DNA from: Saccharothrix saharensis
Lineage (GTDB): Bacteria > Actinomycetota > Actinomycetes > Mycobacteriales > Pseudonocardiaceae
DNA length: 64,000 nt
Reading direction: 5' to 3'
NCBI RefSeq assembly: GCF_006716745.1
Contig: NZ_VFPP01000001.1
Coordinates: 7,513,386 to 7,577,385 of the forward strand
The notes below the pieces were generated by a model. It was not told the DNA's origin, ran no database searches, and was given only the letters and a program-made list of their open reading frames with translations. Below, one piece after another: positions 15,832 through 46,351 of the stretch (within the stretch, counting starts at the first letter, position 1; each line of letters starts with the position of its first letter). Both the position numbers and the translations under genes were made by a program.

Positions 15832-15878
15832 TGGTGGACGATACTGGGATTGAACCAGTGACCCCTACCGTGTCAAGG
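15832..15878. repeat. att site: 47-bp copy of the tRNA-Val(GAC) 3' half
   Basis: Identical over 47 bp to 46277-46323, from the CCA complement through the T-arm, variable loop and part of the anticodon stem. No complete tRNA is present here. The copy marks the left end of the 15.8-46.3 kb island and the right end of the element carrying integrase 1. Confidence 0.88.
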
Positions 15879-20400: not shown

Positions 20401-20432
20401 GGCGCTCCTCAGGTGTAGCGGATTCTTCTCAG

Positions 20433-20450: not shown

Positions 20451-20473
20451 TTCATGCTATCCTCCGATCGTGG

Positions 20474-23590: not shown

Positions 23591-24697
23591 ATGCACCGCC
23601 CACGTATCAAGTACGAGCACCTGCCCGTCCGTCACGGCGACGACCTCGTGCAGATCGGTGGTTCCCTGCCGGGAGTCGCCGCGACGATCCCTGACCCGGA
23701 CGGCACGGTGTGGACGCTGCTCACACTTCTCGACGGGACGCGCACGGTGGACCAGGTGGTCGCCGACCTGGTCCACCGCCACCCCGACGAGCCGCCCGAC
23801 ACGGTCTACACGGCGATCGGCACGCTGGCCGCCGCCGGCTATCTGGAGGACGCCGACGAGCCGCCACCGGAGGCCCTCTCCGAGGCCCAGCGAGAGCGGT
23901 TCGCGCGTGGTCGGGCGTTGTGGCGGTGGATGGACACCGCCCCGCGCACCACCGGTTGGCACGCGCAGTTGGCGCTGCGGCAGGCGCGGGTCACGGTCGT
24001 CGGTGTCGGTGGGGTCGGCAGCACTGCGGCCCTCGCGTTGGTCCAGTCCGGGGTGGGGCGGTTGCACCTGGTCGAACCGGACCTGGTAGAGCTGTCCAAC
24101 CTCAACCGGCAGGTCCTCTACACCGAGCACGACCTCGGTCGCCCCAAGGCCGACGTCGCGGTCGAGGTGCTGCGCCGGCACAACGGCGAGGTCGAGGTCA
24201 CCGGCGAGGAGACGATCGTCGATGGCGTGGGGACGCTGCGGCGATTGGCGGCGGGGTGCGATGTGCTGCTGATGGCCGCCGACACCCCGCACGAGATCCG
24301 GTCGTGGACCAACCGGGCATGCCTGGACACCGGCACCGCTTGGGTCCACGGCGGCTACCACGGGCCCAGAGCGGGCGTTGGGCTGTTCGTGCCCGGCAAC
24401 GGACCCTGCTACGACTGCGCACGCACCGCCGCCGCGCGCGAAGAACTCGCGGCACCGCCGCCGACCCCGTGGCCGGGCACGAGCGGGACGACCAGGACGC
24501 ACGCGGTCAACGCCGTGTCAGCCGGGATCGCGGGGCACCTGGCCGGTCACGCTGTGATGAGCCTGATCACCGGGATCCCCCGCCTGCCGACGAACCGCCA
24601 GATCGGGTACAACCTCATCACGCTGCAGCACAGCACGTTCTACGAATCGTCGGAGCCGGAGCCGGACTGCCCCGCCTGCGGGCGGTCCGCCGACTGA
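23591..24697 (+). CDS. PqqD/RRE-ThiF adenylating protein
   Basis: A 368-aa protein. Residues ~1-95 form a PqqD-like winged helix (L-L-D-G-T-R-T-V-D-Q-V, then A-A-G-Y-L-E) of the type that binds leader peptides. Residues ~125-360 are an E1-like domain: V-V-G-V-G-G-V-G-S-T nucleotide loop, E-P-D...N-L-N-R-Q-V-L-Y, and zinc pairs C-Y-D-C and C-P-A-C. This architecture activates a peptide C-terminus or Cys/Ser/Thr side chains in RiPP pathways. The ATG at 23591 has AGGAG nine bases upstream; GTG 23588 is possible. It overlaps the convergent STAND gene by 58 bp at the 3' end. It is distinct in domain order from the JAB-E1 of the ubiquitin-like operon. Confidence 0.82.
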   Translation: MHRPRIKYEHLPVRHGDDLVQIGGSLPGVAATIPDPDGTVWTLLTLLDGTRTVDQVVADLVHRHPDEPPDTVYTAIGTLAAAGYLEDADEPPPEALSEAQRERFARGRALWRWMDTAPRTTGWHAQLALRQARVTVVGVGGVGSTAALALVQSGVGRLHLVEPDLVELSNLNRQVLYTEHDLGRPKADVAVEVLRRHNGEVEVTGEETIVDGVGTLRRLAAGCDVLLMAADTPHEIRSWTNRACLDTGTAWVHGGYHGPRAGVGLFVPGNGPCYDCARTAAAREELAAPPPTPWPGTSGTTRTHAVNAVSAGIAGHLAGHAVMSLITGIPRLPTNRQIGYNLITLQHSTFYESSEPEPDCPACGRSAD

Positions 24698-26956: not shown

Positions 26957-27064
26957 TCAGACGATAGCCGCGCCCGCGAGGGCTAACAAGCCGATCGCAA
27001 CAATGGCGGACAGGAGCAGGAGTACGCGGGCCACAGCGCGGCCACGGTCGGTCGATGAGGTCAT
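26957..27064 (-). CDS. 35-aa single-pass membrane peptide, last gene of the kinase-GTPase operon
   Basis: The ATG overlaps the stop of the upstream GTPase gene (ATGA). The product is a charged N-terminus (S-S-T-D-R-G-R) followed by ~24 hydrophobic residues (V-L-L-L-L-S-A-I-V-A-I-G-L-L-A-L) to the end. It is too short for routine gene calling; the coupling argues that it is real. Possible roles are membrane partner, toxin-like peptide or anchor for the GTPase. Confidence 0.5.
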   Translation of the reverse strand: MTSSTDRGRAVARVLLLLSAIVAIGLLALAGAAIV

Positions 27065-28551
27065 GGGGTGGTTCCTGTCAGCAGCCAGTGGATGGGAGCG
27101 GCGGGGTCGTCGTGGGGGTCGTGGGAGGCGGTGAGGTAGGTGACCACGAAGTAGTGGACGTGGGGGAAGTGGTGTTCCGCGGAGTGGACGAGATCGGCAT
27201 GGCCGTGGGTGATGAGCCACGCGCGGACTGCGGCCGGGCGGTCCGGGGGCTGAGTGGCGTAGGGGTGGGTGGAGCAGGGGAGGGTGTCGCCCTTTGTCAC
27301 CACGACGGCGATACGGCGAGGCGTGGCGGTGTGGTGCTCGGTGAGGGTCTCGGTGAGCAGGTCGAGCACGGTCTTGGGGTCGATGCCGGATGAGCGCGTG
27401 CCGGCGAGGACGTCAGGGTCGGCGCGGGCGCGGACGGCTGGGAGGGCGAGCGGGTCGACGACGAGGACCACGCCGTCGCTGAGGGCGAGGAAGGCCGAGT
27501 CGGCGATGCGGTCGGCGTCCTGCACGATCTCGCCTGCCGCGTCGTACAGGTGGAGGAGCCGGTTGCGCACCTGAAGGGTGTGCGAGACCGGTTGGCTCAC
27601 CGGCGTGCGCGGTGGGAACCGGCCGTCGGCGAGGAGTGCGCCGGTTTCGGCCAGCCTGCTGTCGGTGAACGGGTCCGCGGGGACGGCGTCGTGATCGGAT
27701 CGCATGCGGGCGACCGCGGTGTGCAGGAACACCGACTTGCCGGCGCCGGTGCCGCCGACCACCGGGACGTGGCGCGTGGGCATCATCTGCGTCGCGGAGG
27801 GCAGGGAGGCGTCGCAGCCGCCGCAACGCGGTGAGAGACCGCTCTTGCCGGCGATCAGCAGTGTGGGCAGTCTCCGGTCGCAGCGGCAGGTGCGGAAGAA
27901 CGCGCCCTGCGCGCCCGGGATGAGCGCGCGATGCTCGCGCCCGCAGGGGCAGACGAACACTGGGCGGGCGAGGCGGGCATGGCAGCGGGGGCACTCCGTC
28001 GTGATTCCCCGCAACATCAGGGAGAAGGACTCGAACAGCCACAAGGCGAGGGCGAGAAGTCGGAAACCCGCTACCGCGGCGGTGAGGAACACCAGCTGCA
28101 CCGACCAGGTGGTGGCCAGCAGGACGAGCGCGATGGTGTAGCCGATGGCGAAACCGGTGCGCGCGGCGGTCGCGAGGAACGGCACGGCGGGCGAGCGCGT
28201 GATGACCTGGGACTCGCGGATCGGGCGCACCCGCCGTAGCCCGTTGCCCGCGAAGCTCTCGTCGAGCTGGGTCGACATGCGCTGGTGCAGCGCCACGAAG
28301 CAGGCGACGCCGAGACGCCGGTGATCGCGCAGGGCCGGGCCGGACAGGTACCGCCGGTCGGCGGGATCGGGCAAGGTGTCCAGCGCCAGGTGCTCGGTGC
28401 TCGCCCGACCGGCGAGGCAGTCGAGCGCTTCCCGGGTGACGGCGACCAACGCCAACGTCAGGCTGAGCGCGACCGCAGCGGTCACGACCGGCCCGCTGAC
28501 CATGAGCACGACCACGGCCAGCATCAGGTAGAGGAAGAGTTGGGCGATCAC
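27061..28551 (-). CDS. Membrane-anchored zinc-ribbon GTPase (second of a GTPase pair)
   Basis: A 496-aa protein. Two N-terminal and two central hydrophobic segments (residues ~4-40 and ~125-180) are followed by zinc ribbons (C-P-R-C, C-P-C, C-R-C, C-G-G-C, residues 187-246). A P-loop GTPase follows: G-G-T-G-A-G-K-S at 266-273, D-A-A-G at 337-340 and T-K-G-D at 419-422. It resembles the paired double-GTPase families of actinobacterial conflict operons. GTG 28551 overlaps the stop of the first GTPase (GTGA). It probably sits at the membrane with its partner. Confidence 0.78.
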   Translation of the reverse strand: MIAQLFLYLMLAVVVLMVSGPVVTAAVALSLTLALVAVTREALDCLAGRASTEHLALDTLPDPADRRYLSGPALRDHRRLGVACFVALHQRMSTQLDESFAGNGLRRVRPIRESQVITRSPAVPFLATAARTGFAIGYTIALVLLATTWSVQLVFLTAAVAGFRLLALALWLFESFSLMLRGITTECPRCHARLARPVFVCPCGREHRALIPGAQGAFFRTCRCDRRLPTLLIAGKSGLSPRCGGCDASLPSATQMMPTRHVPVVGGTGAGKSVFLHTAVARMRSDHDAVPADPFTDSRLAETGALLADGRFPPRTPVSQPVSHTLQVRNRLLHLYDAAGEIVQDADRIADSAFLALSDGVVLVVDPLALPAVRARADPDVLAGTRSSGIDPKTVLDLLTETLTEHHTATPRRIAVVVTKGDTLPCSTHPYATQPPDRPAAVRAWLITHGHADLVHSAEHHFPHVHYFVVTYLTASHDPHDDPAAPIHWLLTGTTP

Positions 28552-29543
28552 GACGGGGTCCTCTCCGCGCCCCGGAAGGTCGGTATCGCACCGAACTCGG
28601 CGAGCAGCCACAGCAGCGGGTCCTCCACCCGGTAGGGCACCGGTTCGCGCCTGCCGTCCGCCCGGTCGCCGAGCGCTGTCACGGCGAAGCAGCGGTGGCG
28701 GCGGAAGGCGGTATGGGCACCGCGGATGAGGTCCGCCTTGTTCCAGCAGCCGAGCCAGGCGGTGGTCTCGTGATGGACGTCCACACCGTCGGACACGACG
28801 TAGCCGCCTGTCCGGGGCACGGGACGCAGCAGCGGCGACCCAGGGTCGACCATGTCCCACACAGTGTCCAGTTTGGTCAGTATCACGGCCAGGGGCAGGC
28901 TGATCCGGTGGTCAGGGCGCAGACCGCGCGCTGCGTGCACGGCGTCGGTGAGCCGGGCGATCCCCGCGTCGCCGGGCGCGGTCCCGGGTTCGACGGCCAG
29001 GACGAGGCCGTCAGCGTGCGCCAGGCTCTCCGCGATTCCGTCGGCGCTGTCGTAGAACGCGATCAACACTGCCCGTGCCCGCGGCCGGATGCGCAGACTG
29101 ACCAGCAGCGGCTCGGGGCCGGTGGTGCGGTGCAGGACGGTTTCGGAGACCAGCACACGGTCTCGCTCGTGCCGTAGCCTGCTCTTCTCACCGAGCACGT
29201 CGAGTGACATGCCGGGGAAGCGATTGTCCAAGTGTCCTTTCGCGACCGACCGGATGAGCGACGCCAACCAGGTGCTCTTCCCGGATCCCGCCGCCCCGGC
29301 CACGGCGACCACCTTCGGGTGGCCCTCGACGTACTCGCGCGGCACGGCCTGCCCACAGGCCGGGCACACCCGGCGGGCCATCGGAGCACGCCCGTGCGGG
29401 CACTCGCCCTTGCGCGCGGCGGACACCGGGAATTCGACCCCGGTCTCGCCGCAGCGCGAGGCGCACTGCCTCAGGTACGCCTTGGCCGGGGTCCGGGTGT
29501 GGCAGTAGGGGCAGACAGGGACGCGCCGGGTCGGGGCATGCAC
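28548..29543 (-). CDS. Soluble zinc-ribbon GTPase (first of a GTPase pair)
   Basis: A 331-aa protein. The N-terminal ~65 residues hold zinc-ribbon cysteines (C-P-Y-C, C-A-S-R-C, C-P-H-G, C-P-A-C-G). The GTPase core has G-A-A-G-S-G-K-S at 83-90, a D-S-A-D-G switch near 165 and T-K-L-D at 223-226. The start is GTG 29543, because GGAGGAG lies six bases upstream. It lies 17 bases after the FN3 gene and overlaps the second GTPase. Two GTPases with matching zinc ribbons encoded back to back suggest a heterodimeric switch. Confidence 0.8.
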   Translation of the reverse strand: MHAPTRRVPVCPYCHTRTPAKAYLRQCASRCGETGVEFPVSAARKGECPHGRAPMARRVCPACGQAVPREYVEGHPKVVAVAGAAGSGKSTWLASLIRSVAKGHLDNRFPGMSLDVLGEKSRLRHERDRVLVSETVLHRTTGPEPLLVSLRIRPRARAVLIAFYDSADGIAESLAHADGLVLAVEPGTAPGDAGIARLTDAVHAARGLRPDHRISLPLAVILTKLDTVWDMVDPGSPLLRPVPRTGGYVVSDGVDVHHETTAWLGCWNKADLIRGAHTAFRRHRCFAVTALGDRADGRREPVPYRVEDPLLWLLAEFGAIPTFRGAERTPS

Positions 29544-29560
29544 AGCGGTCTCCTCCCGGG

Positions 29561-32110
29561 TCAGGGCACGAGCAGGAGGTGGGGGGCGGGGTGGGCGAGC
29601 GCGATGGTCTCGTCCAGGGAGAACGCGCGCAGGAACACCGGCCGCCGCAGGTGGCGCGGCACCCGGAAACGGACGGGCTCGGCCGGGCCGAGGGCGGGTA
29701 GCCGCAGGACCTCGACGCCGTCCTCGGGTGCCAGTGGGCGCGACCCGGACTTGGCGACGACCGCGATGTCGGGGGCGGGTTCCGGACCGTGCACGGTGAC
29801 CAGCAGTTCGCCCCGTCGCCACCAGGCCGCGCGCCGGACGCTGTAGCGCACCTCGCGCAGCCGGGTCGAGCACACCGTGACCATGGGCCCGAACCGGCCG
29901 GAGTCCACGACCGAGACCCCGAACCAGTGTTCGCCGGGCAGGGTCGCGGTGATCCGCGCGCCCCGGCCCGCGTACGCCGACCTGCTGATCTCGAACGCGG
30001 TGGCCTGTGGGTCCAGCGGCCCGGTGGGAGGCCCGTCCAGCCGCCAGACCACCCGCGCGTCGGTGGCCCACATGGGCCACTGCCACGTCAGCACCACCTG
30101 CGGGCCGAACCGCCTGGCGTGCAGGCCGCTGACCGGCTCCAGCGGGGGAGTCGCCCGCGTCGCCGGACCGATGGCGGCGAGCGGGCCGGACACCGAGACC
30201 GGCACGAGCACCCGCTGCCCCGCCAGGTCCGCCAGGGGGACCGAAGCCCGGCCCGTGTCGCTGACCGCGACCACCCTGCCCGCGACCACCGCGTCGGCGG
30301 CACGGAGGACCTGTGGCGCGGGCGCGATCCCGTCGTACGGGACGCGGATCACCAGCGGAGTGCCGCTCTGCCTGGTCCAGGTCAGCACCACGGTGTCGCC
30401 CGAGAGGTCGGCACGCAGGTCGTCGACCTGACGCGGGTCCCCCGGGCACTCGCCGTGAACCGTCAAGCCCGCGCTGTCCGCGGGTTCGCCGACCCGGCCC
30501 GGATAGCGGGCGCGCACGAGGTATCGGTACTGCACACCGGGCACCACAGTGGTGTCGTCGAACCCGGTCCCGTCGGACGTGGTGATCTCCGCGGTGTCGC
30601 CCGACGGCGCGATCCTGGTCACCGATACCCCGACCGCTCCTGGAGGCAACCGCCAGCGGCCGTGCACCGACAGCATCGTCGACTCGACCGCCAGGTCCAG
30701 CACCTCGGGTGCCAACACGACCTCCCCGCTGTGCGCCAGCCCACCGGGAACGCCGTTCCGCAGTGTCTGCACTGTGTAGGACGTCGGCACACCGAAAGGC
30801 GGCACGTCCGACAGCGCCAAGGCGTCGGTGTCGTCGGCGATCACCGTTCCGCCTCGGCTGACCCGATAGGTCAGGCGGCCTGCGGTCGATGTCGACTCCT
30901 GCCACGCGATGACGATGGTGTCGTGGTGCACCCGCGCGGACACCTCGGTGGGAGCCATGCCTGGACAACGGCGCAGGCCCGACGTGATCGCCGGGTCGGT
31001 CAGCTCCCGGCCCGCCGCCAGGTAGCGGGCAGCCGCGTCCTCCGGCGCGGTGTCCTCCAGTTCGCGGGCAGCCGTGAGATCGGCGGCCAACCGGTCCACG
31101 GTCGCGGCCAGCGCGTCCCGGACACGCTCCCAGTCCCCGGTCAGCTGCCGGCTCGACAACACCCCGAGCGCGGCGTGCAGCCTGCCGTCGGCGACGGCTT
31201 GCCGGTAGTCGGACTCCCAATCGGATCGGTGCGTGCGTCGGCACCAGACGGCGTAGGCGAGCGTGTCGGGGTCGCGGGGGAGACCGCTCGCGACACTGCG
31301 CTGCGGTTCGGCTGCCGCGAGGAAGCTGACCTCCTGGTAGCCCAGCAGCACGGCTACCGACAGCTCGCTGAGGAACTCGTGGCGCAGCAGCGGGCTCAGT
31401 CCCTCGGGCTCTCCCAGCGCCTGTTCGACGAACTTGAGCACGGTCAGCTCAGCCTCCACACCCGCTCCTCGTCGGGTCCGCAGCTGCGCGCGCCTGCGCC
31501 GAAGTGCGTCCGCGTGGACGTCCCGGCCGCCGGAAGACAGGTTTCTCGTCAGGTACTCCCACAGGCTGGGGATGCCGAGGTCGGCGAGTGCGTCGGTGAT
31601 CCGGCGAGACTGGGGCGTGTCCGGTGGGATGTCGAGGCTCGTGGGCTCGCGCTCGACCGCCCGGTGCTGTTCGAGCGCGGCCAGCACGTCCGGGCGGCTC
31701 CAGCGGCCCGCGGACTGCCGGACGAGGGCCGTGACGGCGGCGGCGGGCATGCCTGGCGCGGACCGCAGGAATTGGTCGACCACCTTGGCGAGGGCGGTGC
31801 GTTCCGCTGCTACGGCGGTCCGGTGCACCGAGCGCTCGCGCGGATCTGCCAGCGTCCGCGCGGCGATCGGGTGCCCGCGCCGCAGCCGTTCCACGGCCCG
31901 GGTGTGCTCGCGCAGTTCGGGCGTGCCCCACAGCGCCGGGATGGAGGTCAGCGCCGAGTCGACCTCGTCGGCGGTGCAGTCGGCGGGCAGCCGGTACACC
32001 CGGAACAGGTTCCGGTGGGGCGACCACCCAGTCTCGACCGGCGTGATGACCTCGTCGAGGTAGGCGCGGACCTCGGCCTCGCGAAGTCCGGGAAGGTCGG
32101 TCTCGGTCAT
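29561..32110 (-). CDS. Large FN3-repeat protein with degenerate J-like N-terminus
   Basis: An 849-aa soluble protein. Residues ~20-100 (N-L-F-R-V-Y-R-L-P, A-D-E-V-D-S-A-L, then L-A-D-P-R-E-R-S-V) loosely recall a J domain lacking the HPD motif; this is tentative. The middle is helical. From ~430 to the end are four or more beta-sandwich repeats of fibronectin type III type, with T-Y-R-V and Y-R-Y-L-V-R-A strands. The ATG is one base after the Hsp70 stop (TGACATG), so the two are coupled. A scaffold or client-recruiting partner for the Hsp70 is the natural reading (inference). Confidence 0.7.
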   Translation of the reverse strand: MTETDLPGLREAEVRAYLDEVITPVETGWSPHRNLFRVYRLPADCTADEVDSALTSIPALWGTPELREHTRAVERLRRGHPIAARTLADPRERSVHRTAVAAERTALAKVVDQFLRSAPGMPAAAVTALVRQSAGRWSRPDVLAALEQHRAVEREPTSLDIPPDTPQSRRITDALADLGIPSLWEYLTRNLSSGGRDVHADALRRRRAQLRTRRGAGVEAELTVLKFVEQALGEPEGLSPLLRHEFLSELSVAVLLGYQEVSFLAAAEPQRSVASGLPRDPDTLAYAVWCRRTHRSDWESDYRQAVADGRLHAALGVLSSRQLTGDWERVRDALAATVDRLAADLTAARELEDTAPEDAAARYLAAGRELTDPAITSGLRRCPGMAPTEVSARVHHDTIVIAWQESTSTAGRLTYRVSRGGTVIADDTDALALSDVPPFGVPTSYTVQTLRNGVPGGLAHSGEVVLAPEVLDLAVESTMLSVHGRWRLPPGAVGVSVTRIAPSGDTAEITTSDGTGFDDTTVVPGVQYRYLVRARYPGRVGEPADSAGLTVHGECPGDPRQVDDLRADLSGDTVVLTWTRQSGTPLVIRVPYDGIAPAPQVLRAADAVVAGRVVAVSDTGRASVPLADLAGQRVLVPVSVSGPLAAIGPATRATPPLEPVSGLHARRFGPQVVLTWQWPMWATDARVVWRLDGPPTGPLDPQATAFEISRSAYAGRGARITATLPGEHWFGVSVVDSGRFGPMVTVCSTRLREVRYSVRRAAWWRRGELLVTVHGPEPAPDIAVVAKSGSRPLAPEDGVEVLRLPALGPAEPVRFRVPRHLRRPVFLRAFSLDETIALAHPAPHLLLVP

Positions 32111-32111
32111 G

Positions 32112-33638
32112 TCACCGCCGCAGGCCGGGCAGTGGCGCGACGGTGTCGGTGTCGCGGCCGCGGACCTGGGTCTCGATCTCCAGCCGCGCGCCGTTGGCCG
32201 CGTGGGCGTCGATCCGCAGCACCCCGTCGGCGCCGAGTGAGAAGTCGAGCTCGACCGGGTCGCCGCGCCTGCCGTCCCGCGGCAGCCCTTCCATGGTGCG
32301 CTCGTCGAGCCGGAGGTGGTCGGCTTCTTCGTCGGACAGCACATCCGTCATGGACTCGTACACGGCAATCCGCATCGTGGTCTGCCTGTCGCGCACGGTG
32401 CACAAGGTGTGTCGTCCGTTGGTGGGCAGCGGGGTGTTCGGGGCGATGATCCAGTGCACCGCGCTGCCGAGCGAGGGGTGTGCGGTGTCGCGCGTGATCA
32501 GCACGCCGTACCCCTTCGACGTCACGTCCACGACCTTGCGCGACTCGCCGGCAGCGACCTGGGCGGCGCCCTTGGCGACCACCAATTCCGCGTCGGCCGC
32601 GAGCCGGGGCGCGGGCAGTCGAGGGAACGCCTCGTCGAGCCTTCTCGCCACGGCGGGCGTCCGGGACATCCCACCGACCAGCAGGACGTCGTCGATCGTC
32701 GTCACCCCGGCGGCGCGGGCCTGCTCGATGAGGTCGGCGGTGAAGTCGATGGTGCGGTCGAGCAGGTCGGAGGTGGCCTTCTCGTAGTCACTGCGGGAGA
32801 TCACCATGCGGTGCACGCGGCCCTGCGTGGTCCGCAGGGTCAGCATCTGCTCGGTGGAGGTCGACAGCGCGACCTTCACCGACTGCGCCTGTCCGAGCAG
32901 AGCCGCCATCAGTCGCGGCGACGTCCGGGGATCCTCCTCGTCGGAGACGTCACCCAGCTGGTCGAGGACGAGGTCGACCAGTACCCGGTCCCAGTCGGCG
33001 CCGCCGAGACGGGCGTCCCCGCCGGTCGCCACGACACGGACCTCGTCGGGGAACATGAGCACGACGGTGACGTCGAAGGTACCGCCGCCGAGGTCGTAGA
33101 CGAGGACCGCCCGACCGGCGGGCGTGCCGCGCAGGCCGCTGGCCAGCGCCGCCGCGGTCGGTTCGTTGACCAGGTCGATCACGTCCAGCCCGGCGATGCG
33201 GGCCGCCTCGCGGGTGCGCGCCCGCTCCGCCGTCCCGAAGTAGGCGGGGACCGTGACGACGGCGCTGGCGAGCGGGCCGTCGGCGGGAACTTCGGTGCCG
33301 AGCGTCTCGAGCGCGTCCTCGACGGCCTGCCGCAGGATGAGGGCCGAGATCTGTTCGGGCCGCAGGTGCCCGCCGGGGACCGCGACGGTGTAGTCGCCGC
33401 CGATCTCGCGCTTGATCTCGGTGATCACCCGTCCCGGCTCTTGAGCGCGCTGGTCGAGCGCGAACTCACCCACCGCCGCGGTGCCGTCCGCGTCGAGGTA
33501 GACCGCCGACGGGGTGGTTGTGCGGCCCTCCCGGTTGGTCAGCACCCTGGCCTCCCCGGTGTTGTCCACCACGCAGACGCACGTGGCGGTCGTGCCGAGG
33601 TCGATTCCCAGGCGGGGACGGTCAGCGCGGGTCGTCAT
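32112..33638 (-). CDS. Hsp70-family ATPase (DnaK-like, short)
   Basis: A 508-aa protein. The actin-like ATPase has phosphate-1 L-G-I-D-L-G-T-T at 10-17, phosphate-2 V-Y-D-L-G-G-G-T-F-D near 190 and the adenosine motif L-V-G-G-M-S-R-T-P near 310. The remaining ~150 residues form a beta-type substrate-binding domain, but the alpha-helical lid of DnaK (~100 residues) is missing. It is not a housekeeping dnaK: there is no grpE/dnaJ nearby, and it is embedded in a kinase-SPFH-GTPase operon. The ATG at 33638 lies within the 3' end of the SPFH gene (17-bp overlap), preceded by GAGG. Confidence 0.87.
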   Translation of the reverse strand: MTTRADRPRLGIDLGTTATCVCVVDNTGEARVLTNREGRTTTPSAVYLDADGTAAVGEFALDQRAQEPGRVITEIKREIGGDYTVAVPGGHLRPEQISALILRQAVEDALETLGTEVPADGPLASAVVTVPAYFGTAERARTREAARIAGLDVIDLVNEPTAAALASGLRGTPAGRAVLVYDLGGGTFDVTVVLMFPDEVRVVATGGDARLGGADWDRVLVDLVLDQLGDVSDEEDPRTSPRLMAALLGQAQSVKVALSTSTEQMLTLRTTQGRVHRMVISRSDYEKATSDLLDRTIDFTADLIEQARAAGVTTIDDVLLVGGMSRTPAVARRLDEAFPRLPAPRLAADAELVVAKGAAQVAAGESRKVVDVTSKGYGVLITRDTAHPSLGSAVHWIIAPNTPLPTNGRHTLCTVRDRQTTMRIAVYESMTDVLSDEEADHLRLDERTMEGLPRDGRRGDPVELDFSLGADGVLRIDAHAANGARLEIETQVRGRDTDTVAPLPGLRR

Positions 33639-35439
33639 GCTCGTCCTCTTCCCGGTCGTAGGCCTCGGTGATCTGCGCCGGCTGCGGCCGCACGTCCTCG
33701 GTGTCCAGCACCCACACGGGAAGCTGGCCGTCACGCCGCGAGACGCCACGGACCCGCCTGGGGAGGTCGAGGACCCCGGGGTCGTTCGACGTGACGAGGA
33801 CCTGGGGGACTTGGCGACTCGCGTCGATCCGGGCCATCCGCTCCGCCGCGACCTGGTCACGGCCCAGGATGCGGACGTCCTCCTCGAGCTCCGCCGACCG
33901 CTTCAGCTTCTCCTGCTTGATGCTCTCCCTCCGCAGGTCCGTCTCCACCGCCGCGTTGATCAACTGCTGGCCGAGCTGCCTGCTCTGCTGCCGCAGCTTC
34001 GCGATGTGCCGGAACTCCTCGTTCATCTCGTCGGACTGGAACTTGATCGCACCGATGGTGGTCAGCTTGGGGGAGACGTTCTGCTCCCGCAGCGCCTGTT
34101 CGACGAGTGTCTTCAGCTCGGCGCGGACCTGGTTCTGATCGCTGATGAACTCCTCGATGAGGTGGCTGTTGGACACCTCGTTGAAGTAGCCCTTGACCAC
34201 CACACCGAGCAGGCGGGTGACCAGCCGCTGCACTGCGGCCGACTTGCGCACGCCTGCGGTGCCGTGCTCCTCGTCGTCCTCGCCGAACCGCTTGACCAGG
34301 TGCGGCGCGGTCTCCGGTGGGATGACGAAGGTCTGGGTCAGCTCGACCGACACGTGGAACCCGTCCAGGGTCACCTCGATCAGGTCCAGCTCGGAGTCAT
34401 AGCGGTCGGCGCTGACGTCCTTGCGTCCCCAGGAGAGGATCAGTTCCCGTGAGGGGATCCGCACCACGCGGGCGAAGAACGGGTTGATGGCGTAGGTGGA
34501 GCCGCCGGGGAGCACCTCCGACTGCGGACCGAACTGCCCGCCGTTGTCCAGGAAGATCCAGGGGAACTGGAAGCTCTCGTGGCCCTCGATCTTCGGCGCG
34601 GGCTCGGCGGCGTCGACCGGGTGCGCCCCTTCGGTGACGATGACGACACCGGTCTCCTCGCTCTCCACCGATACCAGTCGCAGGTCCTCCGGCTCCAGGT
34701 AGTGGTGCGACAGCGGGACCATCTCCAGGTCCAGGTGGTTCTCGGTGAGCACGTTGAACATGTCGGTGTTGATGGCGTAGTTGCCCCCACCGGGGAGCAG
34801 CGCCTGCTGCGGTCCCTGCTGCCCACCGTCGTCGAGGAACTTCACCCCGTCCTGGAAGTACTTGCACTCGACGTGCCGGGCGAGGGTGTGGCCGTACGGC
34901 ATGATCTCGCCCACCTTGGCCACCACGACGCCGATGGTCCGCAGGGGGACGTATGTGCGTTTCACGATTTTCACGTCGAAGACGGTCGGGTGGATGGCGT
35001 ACTGGCCACCGCTGTTCAGGACCTCGATCTGCGGTCCCTGCTGTCCGTCTTTGTCGAGGAAGGTCTTGAAGTCCTGGAAGTCGTCGCACGGCACGTGCCG
35101 TGCGATGGGCTGTCCGTGCTCGAGGGAGCCGCCCATCTTGGCGTGCACGATTCCGATCGAGTCGCTCGGGATGCTGATCATGTCATGGAAGACCACCCGG
35201 TAGAGCCAGCGTGGCCGGAAGTAGATGCGACCGCCGCGCAGCAACTTGCTCTGCCGGTCCACCGCCTCGGCGAGCGAATCGGCGTGCCGGAACGAGCTGT
35301 ACCTCCGGTTCACGACGACGAACTGCCCCAGCGGAACGTTCACGACCGACCTCTTGACCTGTTGCACGACCAGCACGAGGAAACCCAGCCCGGCCAGCAC
35401 CCAGAGCCCCGACACCACGAACCCGATGACGTCATCCAC
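33622..35439 (-). CDS. SPFH/Band 7 (flotillin-like) membrane protein with internal triplicate repeat
   Basis: A 605-aa protein. One N-terminal membrane segment (residues ~5-27) is followed by a 28-residue motif repeated three times (~127, ~201, ~297) with pattern F-L-D-x-G-G-Q-x-G-P-Q then Y-A-I-N/H-P. SPFH-like beta/alpha domains follow to ~450, then a long charged helix (~480-560: R-Q-Q-S-R-Q-L-G, R-R-E-S-I-K-Q-E-K-L-K-R) for oligomerisation. SPFH proteins form membrane cages. GTG 35439 has GAGGAG seven bases upstream and overlaps the kinase stop by 8 bp. It could form a platform on which the Hsp70 and GTPases act. Confidence 0.77.
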   Translation of the reverse strand: MDDVIGFVVSGLWVLAGLGFLVLVVQQVKRSVVNVPLGQFVVVNRRYSSFRHADSLAEAVDRQSKLLRGGRIYFRPRWLYRVVFHDMISIPSDSIGIVHAKMGGSLEHGQPIARHVPCDDFQDFKTFLDKDGQQGPQIEVLNSGGQYAIHPTVFDVKIVKRTYVPLRTIGVVVAKVGEIMPYGHTLARHVECKYFQDGVKFLDDGGQQGPQQALLPGGGNYAINTDMFNVLTENHLDLEMVPLSHHYLEPEDLRLVSVESEETGVVIVTEGAHPVDAAEPAPKIEGHESFQFPWIFLDNGGQFGPQSEVLPGGSTYAINPFFARVVRIPSRELILSWGRKDVSADRYDSELDLIEVTLDGFHVSVELTQTFVIPPETAPHLVKRFGEDDEEHGTAGVRKSAAVQRLVTRLLGVVVKGYFNEVSNSHLIEEFISDQNQVRAELKTLVEQALREQNVSPKLTTIGAIKFQSDEMNEEFRHIAKLRQQSRQLGQQLINAAVETDLRRESIKQEKLKRSAELEEDVRILGRDQVAAERMARIDASRQVPQVLVTSNDPGVLDLPRRVRGVSRRDGQLPVWVLDTEDVRPQPAQITEAYDREEDEHDDPR

Positions 35440-37066
35440 TGCGCCGCTCCTCGCTGATCCGGTCGTGCACCGCGGTCACCGTCATGCCCCAGCTGTCGTA
35501 CCAGCCGGATGGTCGGTTCGGCGAGCGCAGCGTCGGGAAGAACCCAGGGACGTCCCCGCCGTCGGCGGCCCACGTTTCGTAGTCGTCCGGTACGAAGCCC
35601 TGACTGCTCCACCCGAAGGTGAGGGCCAGGGTGTGCATCCTGTTCCGCGAGCTCTCCGGCAGCAGCGCTCGCTGGGCGTGGAAACCGTGCCTACCGCTGG
35701 TTTCTTCCTGCCACACCCGGGCGAGGTCGCGCAGGAAAGCCGTTCCGACGTGGTTGACGTGTGATCGGGTCATCCAGCCCTCCTCCGACCGCCCGGCTGC
35801 CGCCAGCAGCATGTCGGTGGTCAGCCGGTCGGCCGTGACGAGATCACCTGCTCGCAACGCGGTCCGCACCGCCGCGATGAGCGCCGCCGTACGGTCTACC
35901 GGAGTGGTGGCGTCGTGCGTCTGCGGCTTCGTGCGCACTAGGGCGCGTAGCTGCACGAGATGGGCCGGACCGGGTAATGCACTGGCACGCGCGTCGAGGA
36001 AGGCGTCGGGCTGCCGCGGACCGGCCAGGATGATCCGCCGTACGGGGATGCTGCGCCGTTCCGCGGCCTGTCTCATGTCGACGGTCTCCGGGGAGGGCCG
36101 GTCGGTGTCCAGGATCAGCAGCACTCCCGCACCGTTGAGAGTGTCCGGAATGGTCGAGATCCGCACGGTGAAGCCGTTGTCCACCAGGAGTTTCCGAAGC
36201 CGGACCGCGTAAGCGTCCTGGGGTGAGCCGCAGACCACCACGGACGCTGACACCGATTCCAGTTCCGCGGCCACCTCGTCGGAGTCCGGCCGATCCCGTG
36301 CCCGTTTGGACAGTGCCAGCCCGACCATCTCGCGCACCTCTCCCGGCACCGCGCGCAGGTCCGGATCCGCGCCGAGGATGGCCGGGATCACCTCGCCCGC
36401 CGCGCCGTCGCCGAACGGCCCCCGTCCGGTCGCGGCGTAGAAGACCACGCAGCCCCACGCGAAGATGTCGGACTTCACCGACGCGGTGCTGCCTCCCTTG
36501 ACGAGTTCCGGAGCCTGGTAGGGCAGGGTTCCCATCACCTTCCCGGTGCTCGTCAGGCGACCGATGTCGGCGACGGTGGTCGCGATGCCGAAATCGATCA
36601 GCACGGCGCGGGTCGGACCGACCATCACGTTGGAGGGCTTGAGATCCCGGTGGATCAACCCTTCCCGGTGGATGTCACGCAGCGCCCGCGCGGTGTCGCG
36701 GGCGAGCGAGACGACGCGCTCGGCGGGCAGACCCCTTCCGGGCACCGCCAAACGGTCCAGCGCCTGTCCCTGAACCACCTCCGTGGCCACGTAGAGCGGG
36801 TCGCCCACCGCTTGCGCGTCGACCACCGTGGCGGTGTACTCCGAGTGCACCGCCTGCGCCGCCGCGATCTCCTGGGTGAACCGCTTGCGGTACACGGGAT
36901 CCGCCGCGTGCGACGAGTGGATCACCTTCACGGCCACCTGTTCCCCGGACGACTCCGCCAGGTACACCGTTCCCATCCCGCCTGATCCCAGCCTGCCCAG
37001 AACCCGGTAGGGCCCCAGGCGTCTCGGATCACCGGGTCTCAATACCTCGACCTGCGCAATGACCAT
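35432..37066 (-). CDS. Ser/Thr protein kinase with TIR-like and GUN4-like C-terminal regions
   Basis: A 544-aa protein and first gene of the operon. Residues ~18-265 form a Hanks-type kinase: G-x-G-x-x-G loop at 27-32, Lys47, H-R-D-L-K-P-S-N at 139-146 and D-F-G at 158-160. Residues ~274-350 form an alpha/beta unit (V-V-V-C-G-S-P-Q-D-A-Y-A-V-R-L) that resembles a TIR-type fold but is not certain. Residues ~390-540 (A-D-R-L-T-T-D-M-L-L, then W-Q-E-E-T-S-G-R-H-G-F-H-A-Q) resemble the GUN4 tetrapyrrole-binding domain, known fused to kinases in cyanobacteria. There is no membrane segment. It may phosphorylate operon partners in response to a bound ligand. Confidence 0.82.
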   Translation of the reverse strand: MVIAQVEVLRPGDPRRLGPYRVLGRLGSGGMGTVYLAESSGEQVAVKVIHSSHAADPVYRKRFTQEIAAAQAVHSEYTATVVDAQAVGDPLYVATEVVQGQALDRLAVPGRGLPAERVVSLARDTARALRDIHREGLIHRDLKPSNVMVGPTRAVLIDFGIATTVADIGRLTSTGKVMGTLPYQAPELVKGGSTASVKSDIFAWGCVVFYAATGRGPFGDGAAGEVIPAILGADPDLRAVPGEVREMVGLALSKRARDRPDSDEVAAELESVSASVVVCGSPQDAYAVRLRKLLVDNGFTVRISTIPDTLNGAGVLLILDTDRPSPETVDMRQAAERRSIPVRRIILAGPRQPDAFLDARASALPGPAHLVQLRALVRTKPQTHDATTPVDRTAALIAAVRTALRAGDLVTADRLTTDMLLAAAGRSEEGWMTRSHVNHVGTAFLRDLARVWQEETSGRHGFHAQRALLPESSRNRMHTLALTFGWSSQGFVPDDYETWAADGGDVPGFFPTLRSPNRPSGWYDSWGMTVTAVHDRISEERRSG

Positions 37067-37444: not shown

Positions 37445-40400
37445 TCACGGCCACCAGCGCCGCGCGTCGTCGACCGCTGCGGCCAGGCTGTCGTGAAACC
37501 CGGGACCGGCGAGTTCCGCCAGCCTCGGGGCGGCCAGGTCCAGGAGCGCGAGGCAAGTCGTCCGACTTACCGACCGCGTCGTACGGCGAAGCACGACGAC
37601 CAAGTCCGGGCCCTGCAGGACCGTCACGGCGCGAGTGACCACCGCGACCAGCAGCCCGCGGTCCCGGCTCGGTGCCGCCGCCACGGCCCGTGCGAGGTAA
37701 GAGGCGGAGTTGAGGACGGGCACCAGGCCGGTAAGCGCCCGCGTCCGGGCTTCCTCGGGGAGGAGTTCCGCGGCGGACAGCGCTACACCCACCTCGGCGG
37801 CGGTCAAGCTCGGTGCGGCCGAAGCCAACGCGCGAGCTCTGCGGAACGGATCGTCCATCGCCAGGATCTCGGGCAGCGTGCGGACGAGCGGCGGGGCAGG
37901 CCTGTGTCCCACGGCGGTGGTGCGCTCGTCGGGCACCGCGTATCCGGCCAGCACGCCGGCACGGGTCCGGTGGTTGGCCGCTGCGAAGGCGTCGTCGGGG
38001 TCGGCGGGGGCGGTGGTGATGGTGCGCGCCGCGGTCAGCGCGGCGGCGAGCACCGGTGGCCGTTCGCCGACGGGCAGCCGGGCCGCGACCGCCGTCAGCA
38101 GGACGGCCCGGGCGTCGAGGTCGGAGATCCCCGCCGCGGCGGCCAGCACCTCGGCGAGATCGTCGTCGGAACTTGTCGGGATGAGGGCGACGATCTCGTC
38201 GACCCGGGCGAGTTCGCTGTCCGCGGTGGTGCTCTTCAGCAGCGCACCGATCCGCGGCTGCGGCGCCTCGCGCGGCGGGGCGGTTCCGGCTGCGGCGGAC
38301 ACCGCTTCATCGACCAGGTCATCGGGCAGATCCGGCAGGATCCGCCGGACGGCCTCCGCGCGATCGTGCTCGCCGGCAACGGACATCGCCGAGTTCAGCG
38401 CGTCCCGGAGCAGGTTCCGCTTGGGTTGCCCGTCCAGGCTTCGCGCGATCGCCGCCTGTGCCGCGGCACGCCACCCGCCGTGCCTTACCTGGGACGCGAT
38501 CGACACCGCGTCGGCCACGTCCGTCAGGTGCGGTGCGATCCGCGTCAGCACGTCCCCGGTGATGTGGGTGACGGGATCACGGGCAGCGGCCAGCGCCCAC
38601 GCCACCGCCGGAGGACGGAGGTGATCCGGTAGGAGCGGGACCAGCGCGGCGAGCAACAGCGCCCTGGCAGGCGGGGCGTGCAGCCTGCGGGCGTGCGCGA
38701 GCGCCCGCTGCGGCGTCCACATCCCGGCCTTCACCAAGGCGACCACCAGGTCGGCCGGGATGTTCGCGGTGAGGCTGGTGATCGAGGAGGTCGCGAGCGC
38801 GCACCGTGCCTCGTCCACCAGCGTCGGCGCGGGTCTGCCCGCGGCCAGCGCCCCATCGGTTCGGTGAGCGAGGTGCGCCCACAGAGTGGAGATGTCGGCG
38901 AGGTAGTCGTCGACGGCGTCGGCGTGCTCGTGGGCGGCGAACCACAGGTTGCCCGTCCGGCCCTCGGTGGTGAGGAGCCGGCGGAGGTCCTCGATCCGCC
39001 CGGCGTCGAGCAGGTGCCCCGCCAAGTGTCGCACCGCGTACCCCGACCCCGCGGTCAGCAGGTCGAAGTCGGCGGCCAGCCGCGGCAACCCGGCGTCGAG
39101 TCCGCCGAACCTGGCGAGGTGGTGGTCGACGATCCGGTGACGTGCCGCCGCCGCCGCCGCGGCCAGGGTCTCGCTCCAGTACCAGTCCTCCTCGGACCCG
39201 AAGTCCCCCAAGGGACGGCCGTTCAGGAACTCCCGCAGGCTGGTGTGGTGAACGGCGAACCTGCGAGCCGTCGGCCCCGCGCGCTCCACGGCGAGGAACG
39301 GCCGAAGGGTGCCGTGGCACCAACGCCGGACCGCGGCCTCGTCGACGTCGGCCGCCAACGCGAGGTCGGCGGCGTCGAGCGGCTCTCCGATCACGGCGAC
39401 GACGCCCAAGAGCCGCAGCAGCCCCACGTCCCAGTCCGGGCTCCGGCTCCAGCGGTCCACGGTGTCGGTGTAGTAGCGGGACAGGCCCGAGGGCAGAGTG
39501 GCGAGGTCTCGCACGTCGCGAACCCCGTTCCGCAGTTCCTCGACGGCGTAGCGCAAGTACACCCAAACGCCCTGGCACCGGTTCGACAGCGCGGTGATGA
39601 CCTCCTCGTCGGCAAGCTCCGGCGGCAGCACGGCACGCAGGTGCGCCTCGACGTCGAGGCGGTTACGCGGATCATCGGCCGCCAGCCGCACCACGGCCTG
39701 GTTGCCGCCGGTGCGCGGCGGCGGGTGGCCGGTGCGATAGGTGCCCACCACGAACACCCCGTCCGGCAGCACGAACGGCAGCCCCCACGGCTGCCCGTCG
39801 ATCTCCGCCTCGTCCGCCCCATCAACGACCAGGACCAGTGGGCTCCCCGCGACCCGCGCCCGCTGGGCCGCCGCGTGGAGCACCACCTCGAACCCCTCCG
39901 CGGTGAACGCCCACTCCGGCACCATCGCGCTCGGCGCGATGTCCGTCAGTGACCACCGCCGCACCAGCTGGCCGATCAAGTTCTGCAACCCGACCCGCAC
40001 CGTCGTGCCCCTGCTCACCCCGGCGAAGTGCCCCACCCACCCCCGCTCCAGCACCAGGAACGCGGCCAACGCCGTCTTCCCCACTCCGGCGTCTCCTTCG
40101 ACCCAGACGTACCCGCCGGGCATCTCGGCCAGACGTCTATCGATCTCCGCGAGCACCCACTCCCGCCCGGTGAACCCCTCGCTCAAGACCCGGTCAGTCA
40201 CCTGCCGGTGCTCCCGGACGGCGTTCTCCACCGACACCGCAGCGGAGCCCGCCGACCCAGGGGTGATGGTGTGGCCCTGGACCGCGGCCGTGAGATTGCC
40301 GTGGACGAGGTTGGGCATGGACTGGTGGCCGGTGACCTCGAGCAGCAGGCTGGTGGGCGCTGGTGGCAGGGTGGGCGCGGGTGATGAGAGCCGGCGGGTT

Positions 40401-41413
40401 CCGGTGGTCGTGTGGCGGATTTGATCAAATGTGCCAACGGAGGGCACGGCACCGTAGACCTGCCGCATCAGGCCGGTAAGGCGGTCGATCCAGGCGGGAA
40501 CATCGGTGTGGCGCCCGAGTGCGGCAAGGGCGCGGACGCCGAGTAGTAGGAACTCGTCGGTCGGGTGGCGCTCCACCAGGACGTGCAACTCCCGCAGCAC
40601 CCGGTCGGCGTGGCCGTTGTCCAGCAAGGCTTGCAGGTGGTGCTCTTTGACCGTTCGGTGCCGAATGACCATGTCCTCGCGGCGGCGGTCGGCCCAATCG
40701 CCGCCAAGCCCGGCCAGCGGGGCACCCCGCCACAGGTCGAATGCTTCCTCGAACCTGTCGAGGTCACAGGCCTGGTGAGCAGCGTCGGCCAAGGAGACGA
40801 ACCGGTGATAATCCACCAGCATCGGATCGATGGTGAGCGTGAAGAACCCGGGACGTGAGCCGCTGTCCAGCCAAGAGCCACTGCCGCCCGCGCGGATGAG
40901 GGCACTCCGGATGCGCTTGGCATAGGTCCGGATGGTGGACTCGGGATTCTTGGCCTGCTTGCGTTCCGGGTTGTCCGGCGACCACAGGCAGTCGATCAGC
41001 ATCCCGGCGCTGACCGGTTTGCCCAGGGACAGGGCCAACACAGCCAGCATGCACTCCTGCGTTCTTGTTTGCAGCTTGTGATCGCCGTGGTCACTGCGAA
41101 TCCCGACACCGTCCAACAGTCGGATCTCCACCCGCGCCCTACTGGAAGTCCCGACCCGTGCGGAAGGTGACGGGCGGTCGATCGGCGGCTCGCGCGTGCG
41201 CCGGGGAAGCGTCGGGATCCGATTCTGACGCACTGGCTCGGGTCGTTCCCGCTCAACCACGCCGACCGTGACGGAGGACCCGTCGCGTGCGTTGATCACC
41301 AGGTTGTAGTCGCCCGCGACCACCGGCCCGTCGGTGCTCCCGCCGACGTCCATGTGGCGACTGTCGCCTTCGTGCTCGCCTGGCCGTCCGAGGTCGTCCG
41401 GTGTACGGCTCAC
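37445..41413 (-). CDS. SARP-type regulator fused to STAND NTPase and helical-repeat domain
   Basis: A 1322-aa AfsR-like giant. Residues ~22-50 contain G-G-S-T-D-G-P-V-V-A-G-D-Y, the shared N-terminal motif. Residues ~93-190 form an OmpR-type winged helix, and ~195-340 the bacterial transcriptional activation domain (Y-H-R-F-V-S-L-A-D-A). The NTPase has W-V-E-G-D-A-G-V-G-K-T near 450 and L-V-L-V-V-D-G-A-D-E near 530. The remaining ~650 residues are an Ala/Leu-rich solenoid. SARPs activate biosynthetic or defence genes. GTG 41413 has AGGAGG nine bases upstream. It lies 70 bp downstream of the cyclase-like gene on the same strand; its target is unknown but may be the kinase operon. Confidence 0.85.
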   Translation of the reverse strand: MSRTPDDLGRPGEHEGDSRHMDVGGSTDGPVVAGDYNLVINARDGSSVTVGVVERERPEPVRQNRIPTLPRRTREPPIDRPSPSARVGTSSRARVEIRLLDGVGIRSDHGDHKLQTRTQECMLAVLALSLGKPVSAGMLIDCLWSPDNPERKQAKNPESTIRTYAKRIRSALIRAGGSGSWLDSGSRPGFFTLTIDPMLVDYHRFVSLADAAHQACDLDRFEEAFDLWRGAPLAGLGGDWADRRREDMVIRHRTVKEHHLQALLDNGHADRVLRELHVLVERHPTDEFLLLGVRALAALGRHTDVPAWIDRLTGLMRQVYGAVPSVGTFDQIRHTTTGTRRLSSPAPTLPPAPTSLLLEVTGHQSMPNLVHGNLTAAVQGHTITPGSAGSAAVSVENAVREHRQVTDRVLSEGFTGREWVLAEIDRRLAEMPGGYVWVEGDAGVGKTALAAFLVLERGWVGHFAGVSRGTTVRVGLQNLIGQLVRRWSLTDIAPSAMVPEWAFTAEGFEVVLHAAAQRARVAGSPLVLVVDGADEAEIDGQPWGLPFVLPDGVFVVGTYRTGHPPPRTGGNQAVVRLAADDPRNRLDVEAHLRAVLPPELADEEVITALSNRCQGVWVYLRYAVEELRNGVRDVRDLATLPSGLSRYYTDTVDRWSRSPDWDVGLLRLLGVVAVIGEPLDAADLALAADVDEAAVRRWCHGTLRPFLAVERAGPTARRFAVHHTSLREFLNGRPLGDFGSEEDWYWSETLAAAAAAARHRIVDHHLARFGGLDAGLPRLAADFDLLTAGSGYAVRHLAGHLLDAGRIEDLRRLLTTEGRTGNLWFAAHEHADAVDDYLADISTLWAHLAHRTDGALAAGRPAPTLVDEARCALATSSITSLTANIPADLVVALVKAGMWTPQRALAHARRLHAPPARALLLAALVPLLPDHLRPPAVAWALAAARDPVTHITGDVLTRIAPHLTDVADAVSIASQVRHGGWRAAAQAAIARSLDGQPKRNLLRDALNSAMSVAGEHDRAEAVRRILPDLPDDLVDEAVSAAAGTAPPREAPQPRIGALLKSTTADSELARVDEIVALIPTSSDDDLAEVLAAAAGISDLDARAVLLTAVAARLPVGERPPVLAAALTAARTITTAPADPDDAFAAANHRTRAGVLAGYAVPDERTTAVGHRPAPPLVRTLPEILAMDDPFRRARALASAAPSLTAAEVGVALSAAELLPEEARTRALTGLVPVLNSASYLARAVAAAPSRDRGLLVAVVTRAVTVLQGPDLVVVLRRTTRSVSRTTCLALLDLAAPRLAELAGPGFHDSLAAAVDDARRWWP

Positions 41414-42170: not shown

Positions 42171-42307
42171 CACGACTCCTCACCGCCGAACCGCACTCAG
42201 ATCCAGCCACCTGCAGCAATCGTTCACCCCACGGTGAGACCCGGTGAACGCAGTTGTACGGATCAGCCCACGCACTTCTCGAGTCATATGACGCACAGGT
42301 CGCCCGT

Positions 42308-46276: not shown

Positions 46277-46351
<75 letters not shown>

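What the first reader, a model, noticed from the sequence alone, without database searches (positions are those of the whole stretch)
26957..37066. Seven-gene overlapping operon: kinase / SPFH / lidless Hsp70 / FN3 / two GTPases / membrane peptide
Seven genes are packed with GTGA/ATGA or short overlaps and gaps of at most 17 bp: a Ser/Thr kinase, a flotillin-like protein, an Hsp70 lacking the alpha lid, an FN3 protein with a possible degenerate J-like start, two zinc-ribbon GTPases and a 35-aa membrane peptide. The combination of a membrane platform, chaperone, paired GTPases and kinase suggests one NTP-driven machine at the membrane, in a defence-like island. Paired GTPases with chaperones have been described in bacterial conflict systems; this exact set I cannot match to a named system.
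Basis: partly seen in the sequence, partly recalled or inferred. Interest (0 to 1): 0.85.

Follow-up and report, generated by a model that had tools for sequence, protein, structure and literature searches.

The report
GAP1-less double-GTPase system with membrane scaffold
A mobile island in a soil actinomycete carries a chaperone-and-GTPase gene set of a kind predicted to fight invaders, but its usual partner protein is gone, one of its two GTPases has lost its switch, and a membrane-scaffold module stands in front.

Summary
The seven genes are real and tightly packed. They derive from the GAP1-N2 double-GTPase (DO-GTPase) conflict systems of Kaur et al. 2020, Hsp70/FNIII theme, but depart in three linked ways. 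(1) GAP1, a constant component there, is absent from the operon and from 6 of 6 genomes with this version. (2) GTPase 1 lost its switch-II DxxGE motif: kept in 0 of 6 GAP1-less copies, against 17 of 17 GAP1-linked family copies and 29 of 29 from the class. P-loop, [ST]KLD and purifying selection remain. (3) A kinase/degenerate-TIR/GUN4 gene and an SPFH gene stand upstream. GUN4 plus SPFH is a recurrent actinobacterial gene pair (18 of 20 standalone loci examined). Four gene trees put the GAP1-less version in one group. The cassette lies in a 30.5-kb tRNA-Val island with a 47-bp direct repeat and an integrase. An inducible membrane-associated conflict system is the best reading; function is untested. 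The J-domain idea is not supported.

The parts
35432..37066 (-). Ser/Thr kinase (res ~20-270) + degenerate TIR-like domain (~272-382) + GUN4 (400-492 by Pfam; homology to 537)
   Evidence: Pkinase 5e-37, GUN4 5.6e-11; hhalign to TIR-GUN4 proteins; TIR part prob 94.4, E 8.8e-8
33622..35439 (-). SPFH/Band_7 protein with one N-terminal hydrophobic segment
   Evidence: Band_7 1.5e-10; alignment of 7; segment 7-25
32112..33638 (-). Hsp70 with nucleotide-binding and beta substrate domains, no lid (508 aa)
   Evidence: profile match ends at 487/599; alignment
29561..32110 (-). FNIII-type component: helical N-terminal half, beta-rich C-terminal half in a weak model; no J-domain signature
   Evidence: (homologue L037: fn3 1.8e-4, below cut-off)
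28548..29543 (-). GTPase 1: zinc-ribbon double-GTPase relative with P-loop and TKLD but without the switch-II DxxGE motif
27061..28551 (-). GTPase 2: DO-GTPase2 with four N-terminal hydrophobic segments (a fifth, 355-373, lies inside the G domain), zinc-ribbon cysteines and intact YDAAGE
   Evidence: (1.1e-10)
26957..27064 (-). 35-aa single-TM peptide (matched in same-genus copies only)
37445..41413 (-). BTAD-NACHT/AAA STAND protein upstream; found at 6 of 7 loci of this version
   Evidence: (378-bp gap)
41484..42173 (-). Protein made of the domain that is fused N-terminally to GUN4 in 12 standalone GUN4-SPFH loci
   Evidence: E 8e-24 among 409 proteins; ortholog in L092
24640..26892 (-). NB-ARC/TPR STAND protein downstream, matched beside the operon in the four same-genus copies
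23591..24697 (+). ThiF/E1-like protein, last gene shared by the four copies on this side
15832..15878 (+). left copy of the 47-bp direct repeat of the tRNA-Val 3' end (about 72 bp at 95%, 15806-15878)
46277..46323 (+). right copy of the repeat, 3' end of tRNA-Val(gac) at 46277-46351 (minus strand)
45174..46262 (+). tyrosine integrase gene, 14 bp from the tRNA-Val gene (Pfam Phage_integrase 2.1e-4, below cut-off)

Best explanation
Shown: a GAP1-less derivative of the Hsp70/FNIII double-GTPase systems, carried on a tRNA-Val integrative island. In one lineage the GAP1 gene between the two GTPase genes is missing, GTPase 1 has lost its switch II, and a STAND gene plus a kinase-TIR-like-GUN4/SPFH module stand upstream. 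Inferred mechanism: the SPFH protein forms a membrane scaffold. The kinase protein is held on it through GUN4, since GUN4 and SPFH are encoded as a pair with other N-terminal domains elsewhere. The STAND protein senses an invader or envelope damage and recruits or activates the kinase. Hsp70 and the FNIII protein keep the complex assembled but inactive. GTPase 2 (membrane-bound, intact motifs) is the only switching GTPase; GTPase 1 is a nucleotide-binding structural partner. Kinase output, or membrane change by GTPase 2 and SPFH, then stops infection or growth.
For: GAP1 present with both GTPases at 17 of 17 other family loci examined (Pfam-checked in 3), absent genome-wide from 6 of 6 genomes of this version (controls below). 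Switch II kept in 17/17 + 29/29 GAP1-linked copies, 0/6 GAP1-less. One group in the trees of Hsp70 (7 of 29 rows, 100/100), FN3 (6 of 24, 97/95), GTPase 1 (6 of 22, 100/98), GTPase 2 (6 of 23, 88/87, not starred). GUN4 gene beside SPFH at 18 of 20 standalone loci. Pairwise omega 0.23-0.44 for the seven operon genes against L036 and L092, 0.27-0.52 against L093. Island repeat; cassette far from that tRNA cluster in G088 and G228; flanks not shared. Cassette in 4 of 25 genus genomes.
Against: No experiment. Defence is taken over from the predictions of Kaur et al., not shown. The switch-II/GAP1 co-loss is one evolutionary event in one group, so the counts are not independent. Loss (not gain elsewhere) of GAP1 rests on parsimony and midpoint roots. 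Of the four positive controls, three (G007, G172, G182) had given their own GAP1 to the profile; only G195, and the unplanned match in G203, are independent. One GAP1-less locus (Lentzea indica, G170) is split over two contigs, has frame breaks, and shows only a GUN4 part of the kinase gene. Actinokineospora (G203) has STAND, kinase, SPFH, Hsp70 and FN3 genes without GTPases at the locus, so the GTPases may be dispensable. In Lentzea waywayandensis GTPase 2 is degraded too. Relocation could partly be chromosomal rearrangement.
Confidence: 0.6

Rival explanations
1. Envelope-stress or protein quality-control device at the membrane (PSP/flotillin-like): SPFH plus Hsp70 and GTPases repair or monitor the membrane, and the island merely carries a useful stress module.
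For: SPFH and Hsp70 are classical quality-control parts (general knowledge); a DO-GTPase protein predicted to act in membrane-related stress was noted in a PSP-type operon (passage of PMC11237479).
Against: Sporadic: 4 of 25 genus genomes; inside an integrative island; STAND genes on both sides.
Confidence: 0.2
2. Regulatory AfsK/AfsR-like signalling: the kinase phosphorylates the BTAD-STAND protein or the NB-ARC/TPR protein, which controls transcription or development; the chaperone/GTPase part is a membrane anchor.
For: Best NCBIfam models are AfsK for the kinase (197 bits, cut-off 1300) and AfsR for the NB-ARC protein (360 bits, cut-off 1430); the STAND protein's residues 87-301 match the AfsR N-terminus (60 bits). 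All are far below the curated cut-offs.
Against: The STAND homologue in Lentzea waywayandensis has no BTAD match and is similar only from residue 390 of the window protein on.
Confidence: 0.12
3. A decaying system: loss of GAP1 and of switch II are steps of degeneration of a once working island.
For: GTPase 2 of Lentzea waywayandensis has a GTTEGRS P-loop and DTAGD; Actinokineospora has no GTPases at the locus; Lentzea indica has frame breaks.
Against: The nine genes compared between window and L036 or L092 have omega 0.23-0.44; GTPase 1 is 0.40-0.44 in all three comparisons. Highest values: GTPase 2 and a fragment of the NB-ARC gene against L093, 0.52.
Confidence: 0.08

Closest known systems
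GAP1-N2-type DO-GTPase systems, Hsp70/FNIII theme (Kaur, Burroughs, Iyer, Aravind 2020, PMC7159879; sections 27 and 29 read, other passages)
   Same: Two paralogous zinc-ribbon GTPases of which one has N-terminal TM helices, an FNIII component, an Hsp70; core homologous to, and in the same gene order as, GAP1-bearing relatives.
   Different: No GAP1 in operon or genome; GTPase 1 lacks the Walker-B/switch-II glutamate motif; no DnaJ fusion seen; SPFH and GUN4-kinase genes added. 'SPFH' occurs in that paper's held text once, in the reference list, and its passage on effectors calls GUN4 found only in cyanobacterial systems.
Third GAP1-N2 theme of the same paper (kinase + PP2C + vWA)
   Same: A Ser/Thr kinase in an actinobacterial DO-GTPase neighbourhood.
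   Different: No PP2C or vWA among the operon products; the kinase is fused to TIR-like and GUN4 domains.
Standalone X-GUN4 + SPFH gene pairs (seen here; no name found)
   Same: SPFH homologue with an adjacent GUN4 protein, 18 of 20 loci.
   Different: X is a TIR domain (5) or a domain without a Pfam match (12), undetermined in 1; no match to Hsp70, FN3 protein or GTPases in the stretches fetched around those 18.
Defence models of PADLOC
   Same: Kinase domain matches PD-T4-6 and MADS kinases (best 1.4e-56); the STAND protein matches Avs1b (6.5e-6), the NB-ARC protein a TPR model (2.9e-9).
   Different: SPFH, Hsp70 and FN3 proteins have no match; the GTPases only P-loop-sized matches at E 0.003 or weaker.

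Membership tests
DO-GTPase GAP1-N2 system (Kaur 2020) | DO-GTPase(s) with zinc ribbons, one with TM helices | tested here: met
   GTPase 2 PF19993 42.0 bits, cut-off 27; GTPase 1 18 bits, below it; hydrophobic segments of GTPase 2; zinc-ribbon cysteines in alignment
DO-GTPase GAP1-N2 system (Kaur 2020) | Conserved glutamate in Walker B of the GTPases | tested here: not met
   GTPase 2 keeps YDAAGE; GTPase 1 lacks it (0 of 6 GAP1-less copies)
DO-GTPase GAP1-N2 system (Kaur 2020) | GAP1 protein | tested here: not met
   No match in G000 or 5 other GAP1-less genomes; 4 of 4 controls match, but only G195 did not itself contribute to the profile; G203 matched at another locus
DO-GTPase GAP1-N2 system (Kaur 2020) | FNIII-repeat protein | tested here: met
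   By homology (41% identity, res 16-848, to L037), whose own Pfam fn3 match is 1.8e-4 and below cut-off; beta-rich C-terminal half in a weak model
DO-GTPase GAP1-N2 system, Hsp70 theme | Hsp70 gene | tested here: met
DO-GTPase GAP1-N2 system, Hsp70 theme | DnaJ domain or TPR on the FNIII protein (typical, not invariable) | tested here: not met
   no Pfam match to either; no HPD; weak model shows a helical N-terminus only
DO-GTPase GAP1-N2 system, Hsp70 theme | GrpE | tested here: inconclusive
   none among the operon products; a GrpE gene stands beside one GAP1 relative, L052; rest of genome not searched
TIR NADase | catalytic glutamate motif (SEWVEREI in standalone relatives; that it is catalytic is recalled) | tested here: not met
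   motif missing in the kinase protein's TIR-like part
Integrative island | tRNA-end direct repeat and integrase | tested here: met
   47-bp exact repeat 15832-15878 / 46277-46323; integrase 45174-46262 by weak Pfam matches below cut-off
Anti-phage defence system | protection against phage | not testable with these tools
   none

The most novel reading that the evidence does not exclude
A GUN4-SPFH membrane module has functionally replaced GAP1: a GAP1-gated pair of switching GTPases has become an asymmetric pair, with GTPase 1 a locked nucleotide-binding subunit, governed by a scaffold-bound kinase. GUN4-SPFH would then be a general membrane adaptor in actinobacteria that docks interchangeable domains (kinase, TIR, and a domain without a Pfam match).
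Probability: 0.35. Interest if true: 0.75.

Novelty: new variant of a known kind. Interest (0 to 1): 0.62.

Why it matters
In the library searched, the DO-GTPase systems are described only from gene order, and GAP1 is held to be a constant part. A natural lineage without GAP1 in which one GTPase also lost switch II is evolutionary evidence on what GAP1 does: it may read or time the switch of GTPase 1. That becomes testable by comparing the two forms of GTPase 1. The GUN4-SPFH pair with exchangeable N-terminal domains is a second lead: a possible membrane docking platform for TIR- and kinase-bearing proteins.

Tried and rejected
Scope rejected: the seven genes are not the whole unit; the STAND gene upstream is found at 6 of 7 loci of the version. 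J-domain rejected. GAP1 elsewhere in the genome: not found. Plasmid or phage carriage not supported: no FN3-protein match in plasmids, no GTPase 2 match in phages; the SPFH protein matched 65 plasmid records (Rhizobium 48, Streptomyces 16, Paraburkholderia 1), all under 60% identity and not followed up.

AlphaFold models of the FN3 and kinase proteins were weak (pLDDT 58.4 and 54.6; four-row alignments), so no fold search was run. Promoter and terminator scans found nothing (sigma-70 consensus, poor fit to this organism). Papers: searches found no description of a GUN4/SPFH-bearing DO-GTPase system in the held open-licence library. Of PMC7159879 I saw passages and sections 27 and 29; of PMC11237479 passages only; of the rest the listings. 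Figures are not held, so Figure 6 of Kaur et al. was not seen and may show more. An amyloid-motif idea for the STAND N-termini (listing only) was not tested.

Rows dropped or not looked at: of the 23 genomes matched three (G129, G141, G161) were not fetched; L038 GTPase 1 is missing from its tree (in-frame stop); Lentzea indica FN3 fragments are missing from the FN3 tree; L117 and L118 were left out of the GUN4 count as the same places as L107 and L103; further Hsp70 copies beyond the first were used in the tree only for L050-L054. The Lentzea indica Hsp70 row in the tree is partly out of frame (flagged for letter make-up). The class-wide GTPase 1 set is 30 loci (window included), the best matches in 47 matching genomes; weaker matches were not examined. 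My note said 16/16 for switch II in the family; the recount is 17/17 (16 intact ORFs plus L038). My note also gave the controls as plain 4/4; three of them are in the profile.
Full report
Observation. Seven minus-strand genes at 26957-37066 follow each other with gaps of -8, -17, +1, +17, -4 and -4 bp. Pfam gives kinase, Band_7, HSP70 without lid, nothing over cut-off for the FN3 protein, a sub-threshold DO-GTPase2 match for GTPase 1 and a clear one for GTPase 2. The kinase protein also has a GUN4 domain (5.6e-11). A profile comparison of its residues 272-382 with the TIR part of three TIR-GUN4 proteins gives probability 94.4, E 8.8e-8; the control against a GUN4 profile gives 0.1. The motif SEWVEREI of those TIR domains is missing in the kinase protein.

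What it is. Kaur et al. 2020 (PMC7159879) describe DO-GTPase systems with a constant GAP1 protein. The GAP1-N2 type has an FNIII protein; [quoted passage not shown] I sought the FN3 protein in 200 family genomes: 23 matched, own genome included. From 19 of the other 22 I fetched 20 stretches. In the 17 that are not of the window's type, Hsp70, FN3, GTPase 1, GAP1 and GTPase 2 genes occur together, with GAP1 between the GTPases. GAP1 was checked by Pfam in 3 (PF20013 and PF20014 in all 3, PF20052 in 2); the others were recognised by similarity to these.

The GAP1-less version. It was found in the window, G088, G224 (Saccharothrix sp. NRRL B-16348), G228, G323 (Lentzea waywayandensis) and G170 (L. 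indica, on two contigs whose neighbourhood is inferred), with a GTPase-less form in G203 (Actinokineospora enzanensis). That is 7 of 390 family genomes searched with the SPFH protein. The STAND gene is at 6 of the 7 (not G170), the kinase domain at 6 of 7 (G170 shows only a GUN4 part), both GTPases at 6 of 7 (not G203). In a class-wide draw of 394 genomes the SPFH profile matched 4: the window's own and 3 others, where the stretch fetched holds a GUN4-SPFH pair only. A GAP1 profile found nothing in 6 of 6 genomes with both GTPases and no GAP1 at the locus. It matched the 4 controls, of which G007, G172 and G182 are in the profile and G195 is not; in G203 it matched a separate system on another contig.

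Switch II. In GAP1-linked family loci GTPase 1 carries DxxGED: 16 of 16 intact ORFs, plus L038, whose frame has one stop. In the class-wide search 29 of 29 further loci keep DxxGE and have GAP1 directly downstream (27; L173; L193). In the GAP1-less version 0 of 6 keep it: the four same-genus copies have a deletion (YDSA..DG in the window), the two Lentzea copies read YELPED or YELPEDD. The P-loop GKS and [ST]KLD are kept in 6 of 6. GTPase 2 keeps the motif in 5 of 6; L. waywayandensis reads DTAGD with an altered P-loop. Pairwise omega for GTPase 1 is 0.40-0.44, so it is not a free-running pseudogene. These counts describe one lineage: the GAP1-less version is one group in all four trees, with the GAP1-bearing loci L037-L041 as nearest neighbours. 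The roots are midpoint roots, so the direction (GAP1 lost) is parsimony.

GUN4-SPFH pair. Of 20 distinct SPFH loci outside the cassette (16 of the family, 3 of the class draw, 1 metagenome-assembled genome), 18 have a GUN4 protein next to SPFH; L100 and L101 do not. The N-terminal part is TIR in 5 (Pfam-checked in L099; the others by similarity), another domain in 12 (7 of the 12 scanned with Pfam, no match outside GUN4), undetermined in 1 (L116). A model built from those 12 finds the window gene 41484-42173, just upstream of the STAND gene, and its ortholog in L092, and nothing else among 409 proteins (E 8e-24). That this domain resembles a class III nucleotide cyclase is my recollection, untested.

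Island. A 47-bp stretch at the 3' end of tRNA-Val(gac), 46277-46323, recurs exactly at 15832-15878 (72 bp at 95%). An integrase gene ends 14 bp from the tRNA gene (weak match). The cassette is thus inside about 30.5 kb of island. The tRNA cluster is found in 25 of 25 genus genomes; in G088 and G228 the cassette lies about 740 and 185 kb away from it and in G224 on another contig. No tRNA gene (12 stretches) and no copy of the repeat with up to 8 mismatches lies in the stretches fetched around the other copies. Beyond the ThiF and STAND genes, and beyond gene 41484 in G224, the called window genes have no match over 45% identity in the flanks fetched (about 20 kb on each side for G088 and G228, less for G224). 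The conserved block is ThiF to STAND; in G228 the ThiF/NB-ARC pair is inverted.

Mechanism. Shown: composition, co-loss, one lineage, island. Inferred from family knowledge: SPFH scaffolds membranes; GUN4 docks on SPFH because they are encoded together; STAND proteins sense; Hsp70 with the FNIII protein holds the assembly; GTPase 2 switches; GTPase 1 is a nucleotide-bound partner. Against one inseparable machine: Actinokineospora keeps STAND, kinase, SPFH, Hsp70 and a shortened FN3 protein without GTPases at the locus, and the other GUN4-SPFH pairs stand alone.

Verdict. The composition is firmly placed as a variant of a known kind; the GAP1/switch-II co-loss and the GUN4-SPFH pair are the new points. 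Function is open. The 0.6 covers origin and general mode of action; the purely evolutionary statement I hold at about 0.85.

Noticed in passing
L064:3302-15652 (G000:C1:7467301-7479651, about 34-46 kb before the window): A second DO-GTPase locus in the same genome: Tubulin_2 protein, DO-GTPase2 protein, a DUF4231 protein, and by eye a TIR-like and a MoxR-like protein; no GAP1 match in this genome.
   Followed up: partly
window 20555-22538 and 23591-24697: Inside the island: a small protein that looks like a ubiquitin-like modifier (by eye), a short protein and a ThiF/E1-like protein in a row, plus a second ThiF protein. Could be a ubiquitin-like conjugation locus.
   Followed up: no
window 19434-20451: HExxH protein next to a helix-turn-helix-like protein, as in ImmA/ImmR-type regulators of integrative elements (by eye).
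   Followed up: no
window 14775-15716 and 48914-50089: Two more tyrosine integrases, one just left of the left repeat, one beside tRNA-Val(cac): probably further elements stacked at these tRNA sites.
   Followed up: no
L100:9664-17629: SPFH gene without a GUN4 match, followed by PP2C, kinase and vWA genes, with an Hsp70-like protein carrying an Exop_C domain nearby: another combination of SPFH with Kaur-type components.
   Followed up: no
L094/L113:1100-13930 (Actinokineospora enzanensis): STAND-kinase-SPFH-Hsp70-short FN3 protein-NB-ARC without the GTPase genes; the FN3 protein lacks most of its middle part as well.
   Followed up: partly
window 16192-19401: 1069-aa NACHT/NPHP3_N-like protein as first large gene inside the left repeat.
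   Followed up: no
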